The notes under the pieces were generated by a model. That model saw only the letters and a program-made list of their open reading frames with translations. It did no database searches and was not told the DNA's origin. DNA of 7,223 nt, taken from positions 1 through 7,223 of the forward strand of contig JAGHAJ010000223.1 in the NCBI GenBank assembly GCA_021161545.1, written 5' to 3'. The translations under genes were made by a program, and so were the position numbers. The DNA comes from Synergistota bacterium (GTDB lineage: Bacteria > Synergistota > JAGHAJ01). Shown here piece after piece: positions 2 to 7,223 of the stretch. Each line of letters opens with the position of its first letter. Position 1 is the first letter of the stretch.

Positions 2-400
2 CTCATCAAACACTCAACTATATCCCATAACTTCAGAGGAATTCTGGTCAGCACAAAAACAAGTATAGACATAAAATCCAACACGTTAAAGGAAAACACT
101 ATAGGGGTACTCTTAAAAGAAGCAAAAAACACACACATAATTCAAAACAAATCAGAAGAAAACGGCATAGGTATAGCAATAATCGATAGTAAAGATATAA
201 ATATAGGAAAAAACCTGTTCAAACATAATGTCTGGGGGATAGCTGTATCCAATAGCAAGGAAAACTACCTCAAGATTTCAGAAAACCGATTCATGTTCAA
301 CTATATTGGCATCGTAGGATTTGAATCATCCCTTATAAACTCCATCAACAACGAATTTCAGGTAAACAGTATAGCCATCGCACTCACAGACAGAGCTGTA
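2..400 (+). repeat. Six degenerate beta-helix coils (protein-level repeat)
   Basis: Translated in the frame starting at base 2, about six consecutive units align on the conserved Gly-Ile/Val (GILV, GVLL, GIAI, GIAV, GIVG, then AIAL). Spacing is 22 residues, apart from one unit of 24. The repeat is visible only in the protein; the DNA has diverged, so this is not a recent tandem duplication. Confidence 0.7.
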
Positions 401-496
401 ATCAACGAATCTGAGAAAAAGGGCAATTTTGTTGGAAATAAGAAGAATATCTACTACTACAACAAAGGTTACTACATCCCAAACATGAAATACTAA
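2..496 (+). CDS. Right-handed parallel beta-helix repeat protein, C-terminal fragment (5' end outside window)
   Basis: This frame is open from base 2 to the TAA at 494-496, giving 164 residues with no start needed inside the window, so the gene begins upstream. The visible protein is a stack of coils of about 22 residues with the pattern N-x-F/L-x-x-N-x-x-G-I-x-V. The glycine recurs at fragment residues 13, 35, 57, 79 and 103, with an alanine at 125, and turn asparagines fall in register. This is the PbH1/NosD-like right-handed beta-helix signature. A tail of about 30 residues, rich in Tyr, Asn and Lys, closes the protein without a recognisable sorting or anchor domain. Proteins of this fold include polysaccharide lyases, NosD/CASH-type periplasmic proteins and surface proteins. 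No catalytic residues can be assigned here, so enzymatic function and location are unknown. It ends 78 bases before the next gene, which appears to have its own promoter. An internal ATG at 293 is very unlikely to be the start because the repeats run through it. Confidence 0.8.
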   Translation, partial: LIKHSTISHNFRGILVSTKTSIDIKSNTLKENTIGVLLKEAKNTHIIQNKSEENGIGIAIIDSKDINIGKNLFKHNVWGIAVSNSKENYLKISENRFMFNYIGIVGFESSLINSINNEFQVNSIAIALTDRAVINESEKKGNFVGNKKNIYYYNKGYYIPNMKY

Positions 497-574: not shown

Positions 575-1732
575 TTGGTATTAAACCATTACTTGGACAC
601 TATTAAGCCTTCAGGAATCAGGAAATTGTTTGATCTGGCACAGAGTGCCAAAGATGCAGTAAATTTTGGGATAGGAGAACCCGATTTCGATACCCCCAAG
701 ATCATCAGAGAAGCTGCCCAGAAAGCAATGGAGAATGGAATTACACACTACACACCTAATGCTGGTTTTAAGGAGCTCAGAGAAGCTATATCAGAAAAAC
801 TCTTAAAGGATAACAATATAACTGCAGACATAGATGAAATCATCGTTACAGCAGGAGGAACAGCATCGCTCCTAATCTCGCTATACACACTTATAAATCC
901 CGGGGATGAGGTAATAATACCAGACCCCGGATTCGTAGCGTATGAAAATCAGGTAAAGCTATTCGGCGGAATACCAGTAGCATTCAAATTAAGTGAAGAG
1001 GATAATTTCCATCCAGACATAGAGTTACTGAAATCTCTTATAACACCAAAAACAAAAGCAATAATAGTAAACACCCCATCAAATCCAACTGCTGCAGTAT
1101 ATACCAAAGAGGAATTAGAAGCCATTGCAGAACTTGCACTAAAGAATGACATATACTTAATATGCGACGAGCTTTACGAATACATACTCTACGATGGAAG
1201 AAAACATCACAGTATCGCTTCCTTTCCCGAAATGAAGAAACTAACCATAACTATTAACGGTTTTTCAAAGAGTTATGCAATGACAGGTTGGAGATTGGGA
1301 TACATAGTAGCGGAAAAGGAACTCATAAAGGCTATGTTAAAGTTTCAGCAAAATTCTATCGTATGCGCAAATTCAATCACGCAAATGGCCGGTATAACTG
1401 CACTAAAGGAGGCAGCAAAAGATGTAGAGATAATGCTAAAAGAATATACGCGGAGAAAGAAGTTTATATTCAAGGCAATAAACAGTATTGGCGGCATCTC
1501 TTGTAAACAGATAGAAGGGGCATTCTACGCATTCGTAAATATAAAAGATACCCAAATGTCGTCAGACGAGCTATCCATGTATCTCCTAAAGGAATACGAA
1601 GTAGTTACCGTTCCAGGTACGGCATTTGGAAAGTACGGAGAAGGCTACATAAGACTATCCTTTGCCACTTCTATGGAAAAGATAGAAGAAGGCACAAGAA
1701 GGATGAAAGAGGCCATAGAAAAACTGAGATGA
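575..1732 (+). CDS. PLP-dependent class I/II aminotransferase (aspartate/aromatic aminotransferase-like)
   Basis: This is a 385-residue cytoplasmic fold-type I aminotransferase of normal length that transfers an amino group between an amino acid and a 2-oxo acid. The N-terminal GIGEPDFDTP motif is at residues 32-41 and the Y-T-P-N-x-G-x-x-x-L-R segment at 59-69. N170 in NTPSNPT, D198 and Y201 in CDELYEY should contact PLP. K232 in SKSYAMTGWRLGY is the Schiff-base lysine, with R240 near the cofactor phosphate. R360 in YIRLSF is the expected substrate alpha-carboxylate arginine. One small deviation is Ala where the NPTG motif usually has Gly (residue 173). The sequence resembles archaeal and thermophile aspartate aminotransferases, but substrate cannot be read from it: Asp, Ala, aromatic or branched-chain amino acids are all possible. 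Translation starts at TTG behind a strong ribosome binding site. The TGA stop overlaps the ATG of the TolC-family gene, so it is the lead gene of the efflux operon. Confidence 0.93.
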   Translation: MVLNHYLDTIKPSGIRKLFDLAQSAKDAVNFGIGEPDFDTPKIIREAAQKAMENGITHYTPNAGFKELREAISEKLLKDNNITADIDEIIVTAGGTASLLISLYTLINPGDEVIIPDPGFVAYENQVKLFGGIPVAFKLSEEDNFHPDIELLKSLITPKTKAIIVNTPSNPTAAVYTKEELEAIAELALKNDIYLICDELYEYILYDGRKHHSIASFPEMKKLTITINGFSKSYAMTGWRLGYIVAEKELIKAMLKFQQNSIVCANSITQMAGITALKEAAKDVEIMLKEYTRRKKFIFKAINSIGGISCKQIEGAFYAFVNIKDTQMSSDELSMYLLKEYEVVTVPGTAFGKYGEGYIRLSFATSMEKIEEGTRRMKEAIEKLR

Positions 1733-2982
1733 CAAAGTTAAAACCAACTAAGTTAGCCTTATACCTTGTAATTGTAACTATCATCCTGTTAGAAAGCATT
1801 GGCACATGTTACGCAATTATTACGGTAGAAGACATAGTAGAACTCACACTTAGACATAACCGAAATATAAAGCGGGCAAAGCAGCTACTAAAAAAGGCGA
1901 CCTTTGACTTCAAATCACAGGTCGCCTCTGTGATGCCAAATGTATCCTTTTCAGGAAGGATTTCCAAAACAAATGGTATGTCAACCTACCACAACATAGG
2001 TATAACCCTCACTCAACCTATTGATGCAAGTGGAAGGATATCAGACACATTAAAATTAGCAAACCTACAGGTAAAAATAGCAGAAGCTAATCTACTTGAG
2101 ATAAGAAGGAACATTGTCTTCAGAGCAAAATCAACCTTTTATCGAGTATTACTGGACAAAAGTCTCATAAAAGTAGAAGAACTCCACCTACAGAGCCTAA
2201 AAGAGAGATATAAAATCATATCCGAAAAATATAAAAAAGGTATGGTTTCCTACCACGATTTAATAAGAGCAAAGGTAGATTTATCAAATGCATATCCACA
2301 CTACATCACGCTAAAAAATAATCTAAAATCAGATATAAACAGCCTCACGCTGTTGGCAGGCAAAAATATACGGAACAGCAAGCTACCAGAAAGGCTCACA
2401 TATACACTTCACACCATCCCACCAGAGCCACTGATAGAGAAAAAAGCCCTAAAAAACAGGCCAGATCTACTACTTGCAAGACTAAACGAAGCTGCGGCAA
2501 AACTAACTCTCCTCCTGAAAGAGAAAGAAAACTCACCACAGCTCTCATTTTTGGCAAACTTTGTGCTCCACAGCTCTGTATCGAAAGAGAACCACAATTT
2601 TACACTATCACTAAACCTCAGCTTTCCGATTTACGACAGTAACAAAAGAGATTTAGACGTAAAGAGCCAAAAGGCATATCTCAAGAGCATTCTACTGGCA
2701 AAAGAGCAGCTAATAGAGGAAATAAAAAACGAGGTAAAGGATGCCTACAATGGCATAAAGAAGGCTGAAAGTACCATAAAGGCAATAAAGGGAAATATAC
2801 AGCAGGCGAAGTTGGGACTAAAGATAGCAACAACAAGATACAAAGAGGGATTAAGCACTTACCTTGACCTTATGAACAGCGAACTGGCACTACACACAGC
2901 AAGGGTAAACATGTCTGAGGCCATTTACTCCTACTTTGTTTCTATAGCAAATCTAAAACTGGTAGAGGGAGAAACACGGTGA
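1729..2982 (+). CDS. TolC-family outer-membrane efflux channel protein
   Basis: The 417-residue precursor begins with a basic N-terminus (residues 1-9) and a hydrophobic stretch (10-24), then GTCYA with likely signal-peptidase cleavage after A29. Mature TolC-type proteins form trimers: an outer-membrane beta-barrel joined to a long periplasmic alpha-helical tunnel, the exit duct of tripartite pumps. The internal duplication of the OEP family is visible. A helix segment Y-K-K-G-M-V-S-Y-H-D-L near residues 168-178 is matched by Y-K-E-G-L-S-T-Y-L-D-L near 371-381. The characteristic RPDL segment is at 244-247. Beta-strand segments follow VMPN (68-71) and SPQL (269-272), as expected for the two barrel hairpins. 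There is no Cys at the signal cleavage site, so it is not a lipoprotein. Its ATG overlaps the preceding stop as ATGA. No strong Shine-Dalgarno is seen close by, so translation probably depends on coupling to the aminotransferase. Confidence 0.9.
   Translation: MTKLKPTKLALYLVIVTIILLESIGTCYAIITVEDIVELTLRHNRNIKRAKQLLKKATFDFKSQVASVMPNVSFSGRISKTNGMSTYHNIGITLTQPIDASGRISDTLKLANLQVKIAEANLLEIRRNIVFRAKSTFYRVLLDKSLIKVEELHLQSLKERYKIISEKYKKGMVSYHDLIRAKVDLSNAYPHYITLKNNLKSDINSLTLLAGKNIRNSKLPERLTYTLHTIPPEPLIEKKALKNRPDLLLARLNEAAAKLTLLLKEKENSPQLSFLANFVLHSSVSKENHNFTLSLNLSFPIYDSNKRDLDVKSQKAYLKSILLAKEQLIEEIKNEVKDAYNGIKKAESTIKAIKGNIQQAKLGLKIATTRYKEGLSTYLDLMNSELALHTARVNMSEAIYSYFVSIANLKLVEGETR
2964..2971 (+). promoter_or_regulatory. 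Shine-Dalgarno site for the GTG-started adaptor gene
   Basis: AGAGGGAG lies seven bases upstream of the GTG at 2979, inside the end of the TolC-family gene. It supports use of that non-ATG start, which forms a GTGA overlap with the preceding stop. Confidence 0.6.
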
Positions 2983-4046
2983 AAAAAGTAATAATAATCC
3001 TGTTTATATCACTCCTTGTAGCGGGAGGAAGCTACTACTATTACAAACACCTTCATGTGCAAAAGAAGGTGAAAAGTAAGCACATACCTACTATAGAAGA
3101 GATACAAAGGCTGAGAGGTATTCCAGTCGTAGTTTATAAAGCTAACTACAAAGATATAAAGATATACAGATCCTTTATAGGAACAGTAGAACCAAAGAAG
3201 GTGATAAACATCACAGCAAAGGACAGAGACACAATAAAAGAAGTGTATGTAGATGTGGGAGATAGGGTAAGAAAAGGTGATAAGCTCATAAGGATAAACA
3301 GAAGTACAATCAGCGCACAACTGAGTGCCATACAGGTTAAGCTAAACAAGGCGAAGAAAGACCTTTTAAGGTTAAAAAAACTCCTCGAAAAGGGAGCTGT
3401 ATCAAGGTCAGATGTAGAAAATGCACGAGTAGCGTATGAGAGTATATACTCTCAGTACCGGGTACTAAAGACACAGCTATCAGATAGAATAATAGTATCA
3501 CCAATAGATGGAATAGTCTCCTACAGAAATGCACAGGTAGGTGAAGTAGCAACAAGCACCGTTCCACTACTTAAGATAATATCTACAAAGGGTAATGAGA
3601 TAAAACTTGACATACCAGAAACTTACATAATGGAGATAAAGCGTGGTGAGTTAGCTACTATCTCAGTAGACAGCATGCCAGGGAAAACATATAAAGGGAA
3701 GGTTTCTGTAGTGTATCCAATAGCAAATCCATCAAAGTTGTTCACCGTCAAGGTTCAAATTATGCAAAAGAATCCCCTCCTTGCAGGCATGTTTGCAAGG
3801 GTGAAAATATTAGTAGCTACATACAGGAATACACTCATGGTGCCACTTGCAGCTATCCTTGAGAAGAACGGCAAAAAGTATCTGTTCGTGGTAAAAGGCA
3901 ATAAAGCCCAGAAAAGGTATATATCACTTGGGACAGTCTACAAAGAGCTTGTAGAGGTAAAGAACGGCATTAAAAAGGGCGAGTTAGTGGTCATCAAAGG
4001 AGGATACTACCTCAGCGATGGTGCAAAGGTTAGAATCGTAAGATGA
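2979..4046 (+). CDS. RND efflux periplasmic adaptor (membrane fusion protein, HlyD/AcrA-like)
   Basis: A 355-residue adaptor that should bridge the inner-membrane permease and the TolC-type channel. Residues 4-20 form one hydrophobic segment followed by four tyrosines and a basic stretch. There is no lipobox cysteine, so it is probably held by an uncleaved N-terminal anchor rather than a lipid. The first lipoyl half is at residues 83-107, with V-D-V-G-D-R-V-R-K-G-D-K-L as its core. A charged helical hairpin of about 60 residues (108-168) is the presumed coiled coil that reaches the channel. The second lipoyl half follows at 169-200 (SPIDGIVSYRNAQVGE). A beta-barrel domain lies at about 205-285, and the C-terminal membrane-proximal domain is 286-355, containing VPLAAI and the G-I-K-K-G-E-L-V-V motif. 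Domain order and length are typical. The start is GTG, overlapping the channel gene stop; its own stop overlaps the permease ATG. Substrate class cannot be inferred from the adaptor. Confidence 0.92.
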   Translation: MKKVIIILFISLLVAGGSYYYYKHLHVQKKVKSKHIPTIEEIQRLRGIPVVVYKANYKDIKIYRSFIGTVEPKKVINITAKDRDTIKEVYVDVGDRVRKGDKLIRINRSTISAQLSAIQVKLNKAKKDLLRLKKLLEKGAVSRSDVENARVAYESIYSQYRVLKTQLSDRIIVSPIDGIVSYRNAQVGEVATSTVPLLKIISTKGNEIKLDIPETYIMEIKRGELATISVDSMPGKTYKGKVSVVYPIANPSKLFTVKVQIMQKNPLLAGMFARVKILVATYRNTLMVPLAAILEKNGKKYLFVVKGNKAQKRYISLGTVYKELVEVKNGIKKGELVVIKGGYYLSDGAKVRIVR

Positions 4047-7000
4047 AACTTACTGATATATCCGTAAATAAGCCTGTCTTTACATCTGTAATAGTTATAA
4101 TAGCGGTTGTTATTGGAATATACTCATACACACTATTGGGAGTGGACTTGCTTCCCCCCACAGACTTTCCCGTAGTAAGCATAACAACCTTTTACCCAGG
4201 AGCATCTCCAGAGGATATAAAAGAAAGCATCACCAAAAAGATAGAAGAGGCTGTTTCTACTATCGATGGAGTAAAACATATAAATTCTACATCATTAGAG
4301 AGAATATCCTTTGTGACAGTAGAGTTCAACCTAAGTAAGAATATCAATCAAGCTGCGATAGACATATCCAATAAAATAAACAGAATAAAACGAGCTTTAC
4401 CAGAAGATGCTGGCGACCCCATAATACAGAAGTTTGACGTAAATGCACGTCCATTCATGCGAATAGCTATAACGGGAGATTTTCCTCTAAGTTTCATAAG
4501 AAGGATTGCAGAAGACGATATAAAGAAACAACTTTTACAGATGGATGGAATGGCGTCTATAAAGGTAGTTGGTGGAGAGGAAAGAGAGATACAAGTTCTC
4601 GTAGATCCTGACCGTATGTTGTTCTACAAGGTTCCATTTATACAAATAGTATCTGCAATCCAGCAGAATAATATAAATATCCCTATAGGACACATAGAAA
4701 GTAAAGAAGTAGAGTATTCCATAAGAGTAAAAGGGGAGGTATCCGACTACTGTGCGCTAAACAACATAAATGTTCAAAACATAAACGGCGCAATACTCCC
4801 ACTTCGCACACTGGCAAAGGTAAAAAGTGGCATAAAGGAAAGAAACAGCTTCGCAAGGTTGAACACAAAAAGCTCTATAATACTAAACCTTTATAAAAGA
4901 ACAGATGCAAATATAGTAACACTCGCAAACAGTGTCAAAAATAGGCTAAAACAGATAGAAGGAATCCTTCCAACAGGACTTAAAGTAGATGTAGTGCATG
5001 ACAAAAGCAAATTTATCAAAAACGCCATATCAAACGTAATAAAAAACATGATTATAGGAATAGTATTAACGTCACTCGTATTATGGCTGTTCTTAAACAG
5101 GATTTATCCTACATTCATAATAGCACTCGCCATGCCGACATCTGTAATCTCCACCTTCTTGCTCTTTTCCATGGCAAACTTTACATTAAACATCATGAGT
5201 TTGATGGGACTCGCAATATCCGTTGGGGTACTTGTAAACAATTCCATCCTTGTGCTTGAAAACATCTACAGATACCACGATTTAGGTTATTCTTACAAAG
5301 AAGCCGCGAGAAAAGGCTCAGCAGAAATATTTCTTGCAGTTTTTAGTACCACCTTGACAAACATCGCTGTATTTGTCCCAATAGCGTTTATGGGTAGTAC
5401 CGTGGGCATGTTCTTCAAACAGTTTGGATTAGTTGTAGTCTTTTCAACCCTGATGTCGCTTCTCGTATCATTTACACTCACACCAATGATGGCTGCACAC
5501 CCTCTTGGAAGAGCAAGAAGCATACCACTTGTGGGACTACTACCAAAGGCTTGGAATGCAATATACAGTCTCATTCTGTCCATATACATAAAGATACTAA
5601 AGGGACTGCTACACTACCCCAAAACATCTTTAACGGGATTTATCTTTATATTTTTAGCATCATTCACGCTATTCCCGATGATAGGATTTCAATTCTTTCC
5701 AAGAGTAGATAGAGGTACATTCTCCATACAGATAGAAGTTCCTCCAAGCTCAACGCTTAACGACACAAAGAGCGTTGTACTGAAGGTTGAGAAACTTGTT
5801 AGAAAGATACCAGAAGTCAAGTACATAACGAGCTCAGCAGGGGGTAGCGGCTCATCCAGTGGAGTAAACTATGGAGAAGTAAGCGTAAAACTGGTGGGCA
5901 AAAAAGACAGAAAGCGTTCTACATTTGCCATAGCACACAGCCTGAGGAGAGATTTAGCAGGCATCCCCGGCGCAAAATTCACCATAAGCATTCTTAGCGG
6001 GCGACACAGTGGTAAACCCATACAAATAGAGATTAGAGGCAAGTCAGTTTCAACGTTAAATAGGATAGCAAACCAGATAGAAGAAAGATTAGAAGAGATA
6101 AAGGGAACAGCAGACATAGACACAGATTGGAGGATGGGAAAACCACAACTTAAACTCAAACCATACATCGAAAAACTACCTTACTATCATACAACCACGA
6201 CAGAAATCTCAACCACACTGAGGTACTACATTTCTGGTAAGAGTGCCTCAACATATAGAGAAAAAGGCGAGGACTATGATATCACCGTCAAAGTAGACCC
6301 AAAGAGAATAAAGGATATAAGAGACATAGAGAATTTACCCCTCATAGGTAAGAACTACTTAATACCAGTGAAGGAAGTAGCTTCTTCCACATATACAATA
6401 GGGCCTGTAGCTATCAAGAGGGTAGACCAACTAAACACAGTAACGGTGAGTTGTAACGTGGTAAACAGAAGCACAGGAAAGGTGTATCAAGACATTTCAA
6501 ATAAGCTCAAAGGGCTAAAGTTACCATCAGGGTACACCATAAGATTCGGCGGAGAAGTAGCCACAATGAAGGAGGAATTTGCAACATTGTCCAAGGCCCT
6601 TATACTCGCCGTAGTATTGACGTTTTTGCTAATAGCGGCAATACTGGAATCTTACCGTTATGCTGTAATCATTATGCTAACCGTGCCATTCGCAGTCGTT
6701 GGTATACTAATTGCCCTGTTATTAACAAAGGTAACCCTAAACATATTCGGTATTATGGGGATAATAATGCTTGTAGGCCTCGTAGTAAATAACGCCATCG
6801 TCATCCTTGACTACGCATTTATCTTAAGGAAAGAGGGTAAAAATCCATACGATGCTATTACTACTTCATGTAGAGTGAGATTAAGACCCATCCTAATGGC
6901 AAATCTTACGACCATAGCGGGGTGGATTCCTCTCGTCCTCGGATTTGGAGAGGGCGGTGAATACATGCGCGCGATGGCAGTTGTGGTCACAGGTGGACTA

Positions 7001-7096
7001 ATATCAGGAGGATGGCTCGCCTTGTTCGTCATACCCATAATATACTACCTAAGGGAAAGGAAAAGCAAGATTGAAGCAGATTCGACTAATATATAG
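4043..7096 (+). CDS. RND-family efflux permease (HAE1/AcrB-like) lacking the canonical proton-relay residues
   Basis: The 1017-residue protein has the full RND plan: TM1 at about 12-32, a periplasmic porter/docking loop to about 325, TM2-TM6 at about 331-483, TM7 at about 530-547, a second periplasmic loop to about 848, and TM8-TM12 at about 851-1002. Family landmarks include NKPVF near the N-terminus, FPVV (42-45), YPGASPEDIK (51-60), FFPRVDRG (551-558), RLRPILM (946-952) and GGLISG (984-989). It should work as an inner-membrane trimer that takes substrate from the membrane or periplasm and passes it to the adaptor and channel encoded just upstream. In TM4 the AcrB D407/D408 positions are N399/N400, and in TM10 the K940 position is N916. 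E406, matching AcrB E414, is kept. Energy coupling is therefore uncertain. The length and pump-type neighbours argue for efflux rather than a SecD- or MmpL-type role. ATG overlaps the adaptor stop (ATGA); no good ribosome binding site is adjacent. Confidence 0.93.
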   Translation: MKLTDISVNKPVFTSVIVIIAVVIGIYSYTLLGVDLLPPTDFPVVSITTFYPGASPEDIKESITKKIEEAVSTIDGVKHINSTSLERISFVTVEFNLSKNINQAAIDISNKINRIKRALPEDAGDPIIQKFDVNARPFMRIAITGDFPLSFIRRIAEDDIKKQLLQMDGMASIKVVGGEEREIQVLVDPDRMLFYKVPFIQIVSAIQQNNINIPIGHIESKEVEYSIRVKGEVSDYCALNNINVQNINGAILPLRTLAKVKSGIKERNSFARLNTKSSIILNLYKRTDANIVTLANSVKNRLKQIEGILPTGLKVDVVHDKSKFIKNAISNVIKNMIIGIVLTSLVLWLFLNRIYPTFIIALAMPTSVISTFLLFSMANFTLNIMSLMGLAISVGVLVNNSILVLENIYRYHDLGYSYKEAARKGSAEIFLAVFSTTLTNIAVFVPIAFMGSTVGMFFKQFGLVVVFSTLMSLLVSFTLTPMMAAHPLGRARSIPLVGLLPKAWNAIYSLILSIYIKILKGLLHYPKTSLTGFIFIFLASFTLFPMIGFQFFPRVDRGTFSIQIEVPPSSTLNDTKSVVLKVEKLVRKIPEVKYITSSAGGSGSSSGVNYGEVSVKLVGKKDRKRSTFAIAHSLRRDLAGIPGAKFTISILSGRHSGKPIQIEIRGKSVSTLNRIANQIEERLEEIKGTADIDTDWRMGKPQLKLKPYIEKLPYYHTTTTEISTTLRYYISGKSASTYREKGEDYDITVKVDPKRIKDIRDIENLPLIGKNYLIPVKEVASSTYTIGPVAIKRVDQLNTVTVSCNVVNRSTGKVYQDISNKLKGLKLPSGYTIRFGGEVATMKEEFATLSKALILAVVLTFLLIAAILESYRYAVIIMLTVPFAVVGILIALLLTKVTLNIFGIMGIIMLVGLVVNNAIVILDYAFILRKEGKNPYDAITTSCRVRLRPILMANLTTIAGWIPLVLGFGEGGEYMRAMAVVVTGGLISGGWLALFVIPIIYYLRERKSKIEADSTNI

Positions 7097-7223
7097 GAGA
7101 ATACCAAACAGGACACTGGTTAGGTATGATATCGTGCTTGGCGAGGAAGCAGGTAATATCATTGCTTATTCCACATTTGAAGGACTACGATCCCCGATAA
7201 GGGTAGATAACAAAATAGTCATA
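7071..7223 (+). CDS. N-terminal fragment of a DUF402-like protein (3' end outside window)
   Basis: After a TAA at 7050-7052 this frame stays open to the window edge, while the other two plus frames contain stops. The best start is TTG at 7071, with GGGAAAGG at 7053-7060 about ten bases upstream. That gives 51 codons and a 26-base overlap with the end of the permease gene. The protein begins MKQIRLIYRRIPNRTLVRYD and ends SPIRVDNKIVI at the edge. The basic Y-x-R-x-P-x-R opening, followed by alternating hydrophobic strands and an I-R-V-D-x-x-I-V-I segment, resembles the start of DUF402 domains. Those occur in FAU-1-like RNA-binding and nucleotide-phosphatase proteins. The match is from memory of the family pattern and the conserved C-terminal acidic residues of the domain lie beyond the window. 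It is a real coding candidate and probably the next gene of the same operon; its function is unassigned. Confidence 0.6.
   Translation, partial: MKQIRLIYRRIPNRTLVRYDIVLGEEAGNIIAYSTFEGLRSPIRVDNKIVI

What the first reader, a model, noticed from the sequence alone, without database searches (positions are those of the whole stretch)
5237..6793. RND permease with Asn-Asn in TM4 and Asn in TM10 in place of the proton relay
Seen directly: TM4 reads GVLVNNSILVLEN, with N399/N400 encoded by AAC AAT at 5237-5242. TM10 reads GLVVNNAIVILD, with N916/N917 at 6788-6793. Established: in AcrB, D407/D408 (TM4) and K940 (TM10) are the proton-relay residues and are needed for drug export. Many HAE1 relatives already have Asn at the TM10 position but keep at least one TM4 Asp. 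Inference: with no acid at either TM4 position, this pump cannot use the known protonation cycle. It may use other ionisable residues, another ion, a partner permease, or act as a non-coupled or altered member. The rest of the protein looks intact, so decay is not the obvious explanation.
Basis: partly seen in the sequence, partly recalled or inferred. Interest (0 to 1): 0.62.

Follow-up and report, generated by a model that had tools for sequence, protein, structure and literature searches.

The report
Efflux pump lacking its proton-binding acids
This is a bacterial efflux pump of the well-studied AcrB type in which the amino acids known to capture the protons that power such pumps are replaced by uncharged asparagine, and because the same replacement is kept by selection in distant bacterial phyla, the pump is probably working and powered in some way not yet described.

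Summary
The permease (window 4043-7096, 1017 aa) has Asn-Asn where AcrB has D407/D408 and Asn where AcrB has K940; T978, E346 and D924 are also replaced. It is not an error or a decayed copy. Homologues at 36-44% identity keep the TM4 Asn pair in Synergistota, Planctomycetota, Auribacterota and Lentisphaerota, and homologue pairs show purifying selection. A tree built without the relay columns places the query as sister to the other Synergistota proteins, inside a large clade without a TM4 acid. Most Synergistota members gained substitute Asp in TM11 (AcrB 979) and TM2 (AcrB 343). The query has Asn at both, like 13 permeases mostly from other phyla, so it lacks even that substitute. TM4 Asp was regained at least twice inside the clade, suggesting that ion coupling at this interface persists. 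Operons examined have one permease with TolC and adaptor genes; three of three checked carry a TetR regulator. Best reading: a working tripartite efflux pump with a rebuilt, neutral Asn/Thr relay. How it is energised is unproven; Na+ coupling is my favoured idea, against protons through the few remaining ionisable residues. New variant of a known kind.

The parts
4043..7096 (+). RND permease, 1017 aa, full length, TM4-acid-free
   Evidence: ORF; PF00873 806 bits over 3-1019 of 1021; AlphaFold2 mean pLDDT 85.7; Foldseek best 8f3e_B TM 0.91; VIA-align Z 51.3, 990 aligned, rmsd 3.9
5237..5242 (+). N399-N400 in TM4 (AcrB D407/D408)
   Evidence: AAC AAT; alignment
6788..6793 (+). N916-N917 in TM10 (AcrB K940/N941)
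   Evidence: AAT AAC; alignment
6902..6904 (+). N954 in TM11 (AcrB S979); Asp in 52 of 52 group A rows, Asn in 14 of 14 group B rows
5045..5047 (+). N335 in TM2 (AcrB T343); Asp in 48 of 52 group A rows, Asn in 14 of 14 group B rows
6899..6901 (+). A953 in TM11 (AcrB T978, relay hydrogen-bond partner lost)
5258..5260 (+). E406 (AcrB E414), retained
6878..6880 (+). R946 (AcrB R971), retained
5069..5071 (+). T343 in TM2 (AcrB V351), polar residue typical of the acid-free clade
5360..5362 (+). N440 in TM5 (AcrB L449), polar residue typical of the acid-free clade
5447..5449 (+). T469 in TM6 (AcrB M478), polar residue typical of the acid-free clade
6620..6622 (+). T860 in TM8 (AcrB V884), polar residue typical of the acid-free clade
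2979..4046 (+). Periplasmic adaptor (RND_mfp); 4-base overlap with the permease start
   Evidence: TIGR01730 207.7 bits, cut-off 94.9; coordinates
1729..2982 (+). TolC-family outer-membrane channel; 4-base overlap with the adaptor
   Evidence: TIGR01844 115 bits, below its cut-off; coordinates
575..1732 (+). PLP-dependent aminotransferase; 4-base overlap with the TolC gene
   Evidence: coordinates

Best explanation
The gene encodes the permease of a complete, selected TolC-adaptor-permease efflux pump with the AcrB fold. It belongs to an old clade in which the acid and lysine proton relay was replaced by a neutral polar cluster: N335 in TM2, N399/N400 in TM4, N440 in TM5, T469/S472 in TM6, N916/N917 in TM10 and N954 in TM11. 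Shown: homology, intactness, conservation across phyla, one permease per operon, and repeated gain, loss and movement of acids at the same helix interface. Inferred: the porter domains still cycle as in AcrB, and an ion gradient still drives the cycle through this interface, with the ion site formed by neutral ligands. Na+ is the most likely ion in my judgement (about 0.3 on its own), because a neutral Asn/Thr/carbonyl cage can bind Na+ but cannot hold a proton. A proton path using the retained E406/R946 and D923 comes next (about 0.25).
For: NN in TM4 in every nearest homologue. Group B (query plus 13 permeases from Planctomycetota, Auribacterota and unnamed PVC MAGs) has Asn at AcrB 343, 407, 408, 940, 941 and 979 in 14 of 14 rows. 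New polar residues T351, N449, T478 and T884 are shared by the acid-free groups and mostly absent from conventional permeases. Purifying selection: dN/dS 0.09-0.31 in group B pairs. One permease per operon; TetR gene next to three of three group B operons checked. Tree: acid-free clade SH-aLRT 98, TM4 Asp regained inside it. AcrB-like fold. The genome encodes a V-type c-subunit that looks Na+-binding (motif from memory).
Against: No transport data exist for any member of the clade that I know of. D407N or D408N alone inactivates AcrB (PMC4359379). Dispatched, a Na+-linked RND-superfamily protein (from memory), keeps three TM acids (PMC8630017). No coordinates could be measured, so the spatial cluster rests on alignment to AcrB. 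The genome also has a conventional TM4-Asp pump on another contig.
Confidence: 0.5

Rival explanations
1. Still proton-driven, but protonation occurs at ionisable residues shared with all pumps: E406 (AcrB E414) with R946 (R971), D923 (E947) or E869 (E893), reached by a water chain through the Asn cluster.
For: E406, D923, R946 and E869 are invariant in groups A and B; acids reappear at several positions of the same interface.
Against: These residues are about equally conserved in conventional pumps, where they do not suffice without D407/D408 (PMC4359379); E414 is Gln in group D and E893 is mostly Asn in group E.
Confidence: 0.25
2. Uncoupled or weakly coupled member: the permease cycles by substrate binding or membrane potential and serves as a facilitator between periplasm and TolC.
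For: AcrB D-to-N variants cannot translocate protons (PMC4359379); the triple Asp-to-Asn Dispatched mutant still folds and binds its ligand more strongly (PMC8630017).
Against: TM interface residues are strictly conserved, and acids were regained there at least twice, which is odd if coupling were dispensable.
Confidence: 0.15
3. Mixed trimer: the acid-free permease works with a TM4-Asp permease encoded elsewhere, as MdtB and MdtC do.
For: MdtBC divides energising and substrate binding between subunits (PMC4338810); the own genome has a VDN permease.
Against: No second permease was found in the operons examined; the conventional pump in the own genome has its own adaptor; one Planctomycetes MAG (G193) holds the NN/N permease as its only clear PF00873 match, though its completeness is unknown.
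Confidence: 0.08
4. Decayed gene or sequencing/assembly error.
For: The genome is an incomplete MAG (82% complete); the query branch is long (0.72).
Against: The ORF is intact, the same residues occur in independent genomes of several phyla, and homologue pairs show purifying selection.
Confidence: 0.02

Closest known systems
AcrB (HAE-1, E. coli)
   Same: Fold over the whole length, tripartite pump, G403, E414, N941, R971 and R973 retained.
   Different: D407N, D408N, K940N, T978A, E346I and D924N; about 24% structure-based identity.
MdtB/MdtC (heterotrimeric pump)
   Same: Best sequence match among solved structures is MdtB.
   Different: MdtB and MdtC keep DD and K and are encoded side by side; here a single permease gene.
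CusA/CzcA (HME metal pumps)
   Same: RND fold (3ne5).
   Different: CusA keeps the TM4 Asp; TIGR00914 scores 424 bits against a cut-off of 701.
Dispatched triple-Asn laboratory mutant
   Same: TM4 Asp-Asp and TM10 Asp changed to Asn (PMC8630017), close to the state found here in nature.
   Different: Made in the laboratory in a human protein; it binds its ligand more strongly than wild type.
Synergistota NN permeases with TM11 Asp (group A of this report)
   Same: TM4 NN, TM10 NN, same operon order, 40-44% identity.
   Different: Asp at AcrB 979 and mostly at 343, where the query has Asn.

Membership tests
RND permease, Pfam ACR_tran (PF00873) | Full-length match above the curated cut-off | tested here: met
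   806 bits against 28, positions 3-1019 of 1021
RND permease, Pfam ACR_tran (PF00873) | AcrB-type fold, TM and porter domains | tested here: met
   pLDDT 85.7; TM 0.91 to 8f3e_B; Z 51.3 over 990 residues
HAE-1/HME proton relay | TM4 motif GxxxDxxxxxxE (PMC2891726) | tested here: not met
   G395 and E406 present, D407 position is N399
HAE-1 proton relay | D407, D408, K940, T978 | tested here: not met
   N399, N400, N916, A953
HAE-1 proton relay | R971 in TM11 | tested here: met
   R946, invariant in groups A-D
NCBIfam drug-efflux permease subfamilies | Curated cut-off of RND_permease_2 (NF033617) | tested here: not met
   724 bits against 1250
HME metal pumps (CusA/CzcA, TIGR00914) | Curated cut-off | tested here: not met
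   424 against 701 bits
Tripartite efflux system | TolC, adaptor and permease genes in one operon | tested here: met
   Window genes with 4-base overlaps; same order in relatives
MdtBC-type heterotrimer | Two permease genes in the operon | tested here: not met
   One permease per locus in relatives; the window contig ends 127 bases after the gene, so its own downstream side is not seen
TM4-acid-free RND clade (defined here) | No acid at AcrB 407/408 plus T351, N449, T478, T884 | tested here: met
   T343, N440, T469, T860; tree
Na+-coupled RND protein | Na+-dependent transport | not testable with these tools
   Needs a transport assay

The most novel reading that the evidence does not exclude
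An AcrB-type tripartite efflux pump powered by Na+, or another cation, bound in a neutral Asn/Thr cage in place of the acid relay, as an old and widespread alternative to proton-driven efflux in several bacterial phyla.
Probability: 0.3. Interest if true: 0.85.

Novelty: new variant of a known kind. Interest (0 to 1): 0.6.

Why it matters
The TM4 acids are treated as the general engine of HAE-1 and HME pumps: the GxxxDxxxxxxE motif was reported as highly conserved in 39 reference proteins and present in all 254 Burkholderia sequences (PMC2891726), and Asp-to-Asn changes inactivate AcrB (PMC4359379). A conserved clade that lacks them, with natural intermediates in which acids appear in TM2 or TM11 or return to TM4, gives an experiment of nature on how RND pumps couple an ion gradient to export. 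It also warns that presence of an RND gene does not by itself imply proton-driven efflux. I found no description of such permeases in the papers searched, but that library omits most subscription journals.

Tried and rejected
Compensating acid in the query's TM helices: none found; the acids there (E406, D923, E869, E428) are shared with conventional pumps. TM11 Asp as compensation: true for group A, not for the query. Query-like TM11 stretch elsewhere: no exact match in genome contigs, and among 185 Synergistota genomes only the own one matched the TM11 Asn pattern. Viral contigs: no relatives. Query and group B as one clade: p-AU 0.045, so the shared Asn979 looks like a retained older state, at borderline significance. 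Rnf in the own genome: no match, so that Na+ pump gives no support. Literature searches for acid-free RND permeases found none. Borrelia BesB was followed as a possible precedent; the passages read gave nothing on its relay residues.

Full report
Observation. The window holds four genes on the plus strand that overlap each other by 4 bases: an aminotransferase (575-1732), a TolC-family channel (1729-2982), a periplasmic adaptor (2979-4046) and an RND permease (4043-7096). TM4 reads GVLVNNSILVLEN with AAC AAT at 5237-5242, and TM10 reads GLVVNNAIVILD with AAT AAC at 6788-6793. Alignment to AcrB, MdtB, MdtC and CusA places these on D407/D408 and K940/N941. The protein is complete: PF00873 matches over 3-1019 of 1021 positions, the AlphaFold2 model has mean pLDDT 85.7, and it superposes on AcrD and AcrB chains over about 1000 residues. 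I could not read coordinates, so no distances are claimed.

In AcrB, D407 hydrogen-bonds T978, D408 bonds S481, and E346 and D924 stand at the periplasmic proton entrances (PMC4359379). In this protein T978 is Ala, E346 is Ile and D924 is Asn, while S481, E414, R971 and R973 remain.

Not decay, not error. The window lies in an incomplete Synergistota MAG (82% complete; phylum inferred from named records of the same genomes' permeases). The closest homologues share 40-44% identity and all have NN in TM4 and TM10. A scan of named genomes kept 80 loci. Sorted by relay state: group A, NN plus Asp at AcrB 979, 52 rows, all Synergistota as far as named; group B, NN plus Asn979, 14 rows, namely the query and permeases of Planctomycetota (including Sedimentisphaerales and Brocadiaceae), Auribacterota and unnamed PVC MAGs; a Lentisphaerota protein with Glu979 (L102) groups with them in the tree; group C, NN plus Ile979, five Synergistota; group D, Met-Asn plus Val979, 15 Synergistota; group E, mostly Ala-Asn or Ser-Asn, from Omnitrophota, Elusimicrobiota, Bdellovibrionota and others; group F, conventional TM4 Asp. 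Some group A rows are the same gene found by two searches. The scan was seeded with the motifs MLVGLVVN and G[VI]LVNN[SA]IL, so these counts are not frequencies. Pairs of homologues show dN/dS of 0.14, 0.09 and 0.31 in group B, 0.05 in group C and 0.06 in group A, the last with dS near 1.9.

History. A tree of 65 permeases with the relay columns removed puts all acid-free rows on one side of a branch with SH-aLRT 98, together with three Asp-bearing rows (L020, L095, L103) nested inside. Holding those three outside is rejected (p-AU 7.6e-73), so TM4 Asp was most simply regained at least twice. L020, nested among group A rows, regained D407 and lacks Asp979. The query is sister to all other Synergistota rows (support 99 and 100). 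Grouping it with group B is borderline rejected (p-AU 0.045). The simplest history is therefore that NN with Asn979 is the older state, kept by the query, and that Asp979 arose later in Synergistota.

A rebuilt interface. In group B, Asn is invariant at AcrB positions 343, 407, 408, 940, 941 and 979. All acid-free groups also share Thr351 (TM2), Asn449 (TM5), Thr478 (TM6) and Thr884 (TM8) with few exceptions. Conventional permeases from the same genomes mostly lack them, and the nested Asp-bearing rows mostly keep them. Because AcrB D408 contacts S481 of TM6 and L442 of TM5 (PMC4359379), helix periodicity suggests that T469/S472 and N440 face N400. This is inference.

Context. Relatives with enough flank show the order TolC, adaptor, permease or adaptor, permease, with one permease gene. 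Three of three group B operons examined have a TetR gene directly before TolC, the usual arrangement of an inducible efflux pump. In 11 genomes that carry such a permease outside Synergistota, the other RND permeases that could be read have TM4 Asp; in one Planctomycetes MAG (G193) the acid-free permease is the only clear match. The own genome has a TM4-Asp permease with its own adaptor and a piece of a TolC gene.

Mechanism. Established: D407N, D408N, K940A and R971A each abolish proton translocation and drug efflux in AcrB (PMC4359379), so the published cycle cannot run here. The repeated return and relocation of acids at this interface suggests that coupling through it has been retained. 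I favour a cation bound by neutral ligands, with Na+ first. The own genome encodes a V-type ATPase c-subunit with LPGTQG, GISQG and VETYA segments that resemble the Na+-binding type from memory, and a membrane pyrophosphatase, but no Rnf. A sodium cycle is plausible, not shown. The proton rival uses E406/R946 and D923. A mixed trimer and an uncoupled facilitator are less likely but not excluded.

Novelty. The TM4 motif is described as highly conserved in HAE-1 and HME proteins and was found in all 254 Burkholderia sequences (PMC2891726); D408 and the TM10 base are known to vary (PMC5719797). I found no report of permeases lacking both TM4 acids in ten literature searches, within a library that omits many journals. 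I file it as a new variant of a known kind.

Noticed in passing
window 575-1732 and 1729: An aminotransferase gene overlaps the TolC gene start by 4 bases, so it looks co-transcribed with the pump. No strong aminotransferase match was seen beside relatives' operons; it may hint at export of an amino-acid-derived compound.
   Followed up: partly
window 2-496: C-terminal part of a NosD-like parallel beta-helix protein (PF05048).
   Followed up: no
window 7071-7223: An open frame starting TTG inside the permease 3' end runs off the contig; no Pfam match for the 51 residues.
   Followed up: no
L002 and L003 (own genome C81, C195): Two pieces of a conventional TM4-Asp permease are 94% identical over 382 residues: strain mixture or a recent duplication.
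   Followed up: no
L019, L021-L034: A Synergistota clade has Met-Asn in TM4, Gln instead of the conserved Glu (IIQN) and Val in TM11, so it lacks the TM4 and TM11 acids and E414 while keeping an Asp at AcrB 343.
   Followed up: partly
L106, L109, L116-L130: Many Omnitrophota, Elusimicrobiota and Bdellovibrionota permeases have LGTLIANA in TM4, Lys instead of R971 and mostly Asn instead of E893.
   Followed up: partly
L040: A group A-like permease with Asn-Asp in TM4 and Asp979 together, a possible intermediate.
   Followed up: no
L168, L169 (own genome C197, C206): Two different V/A-type ATPase c-subunits, one with a Na+-type look and one without (judged by motif from memory).
   Followed up: partly
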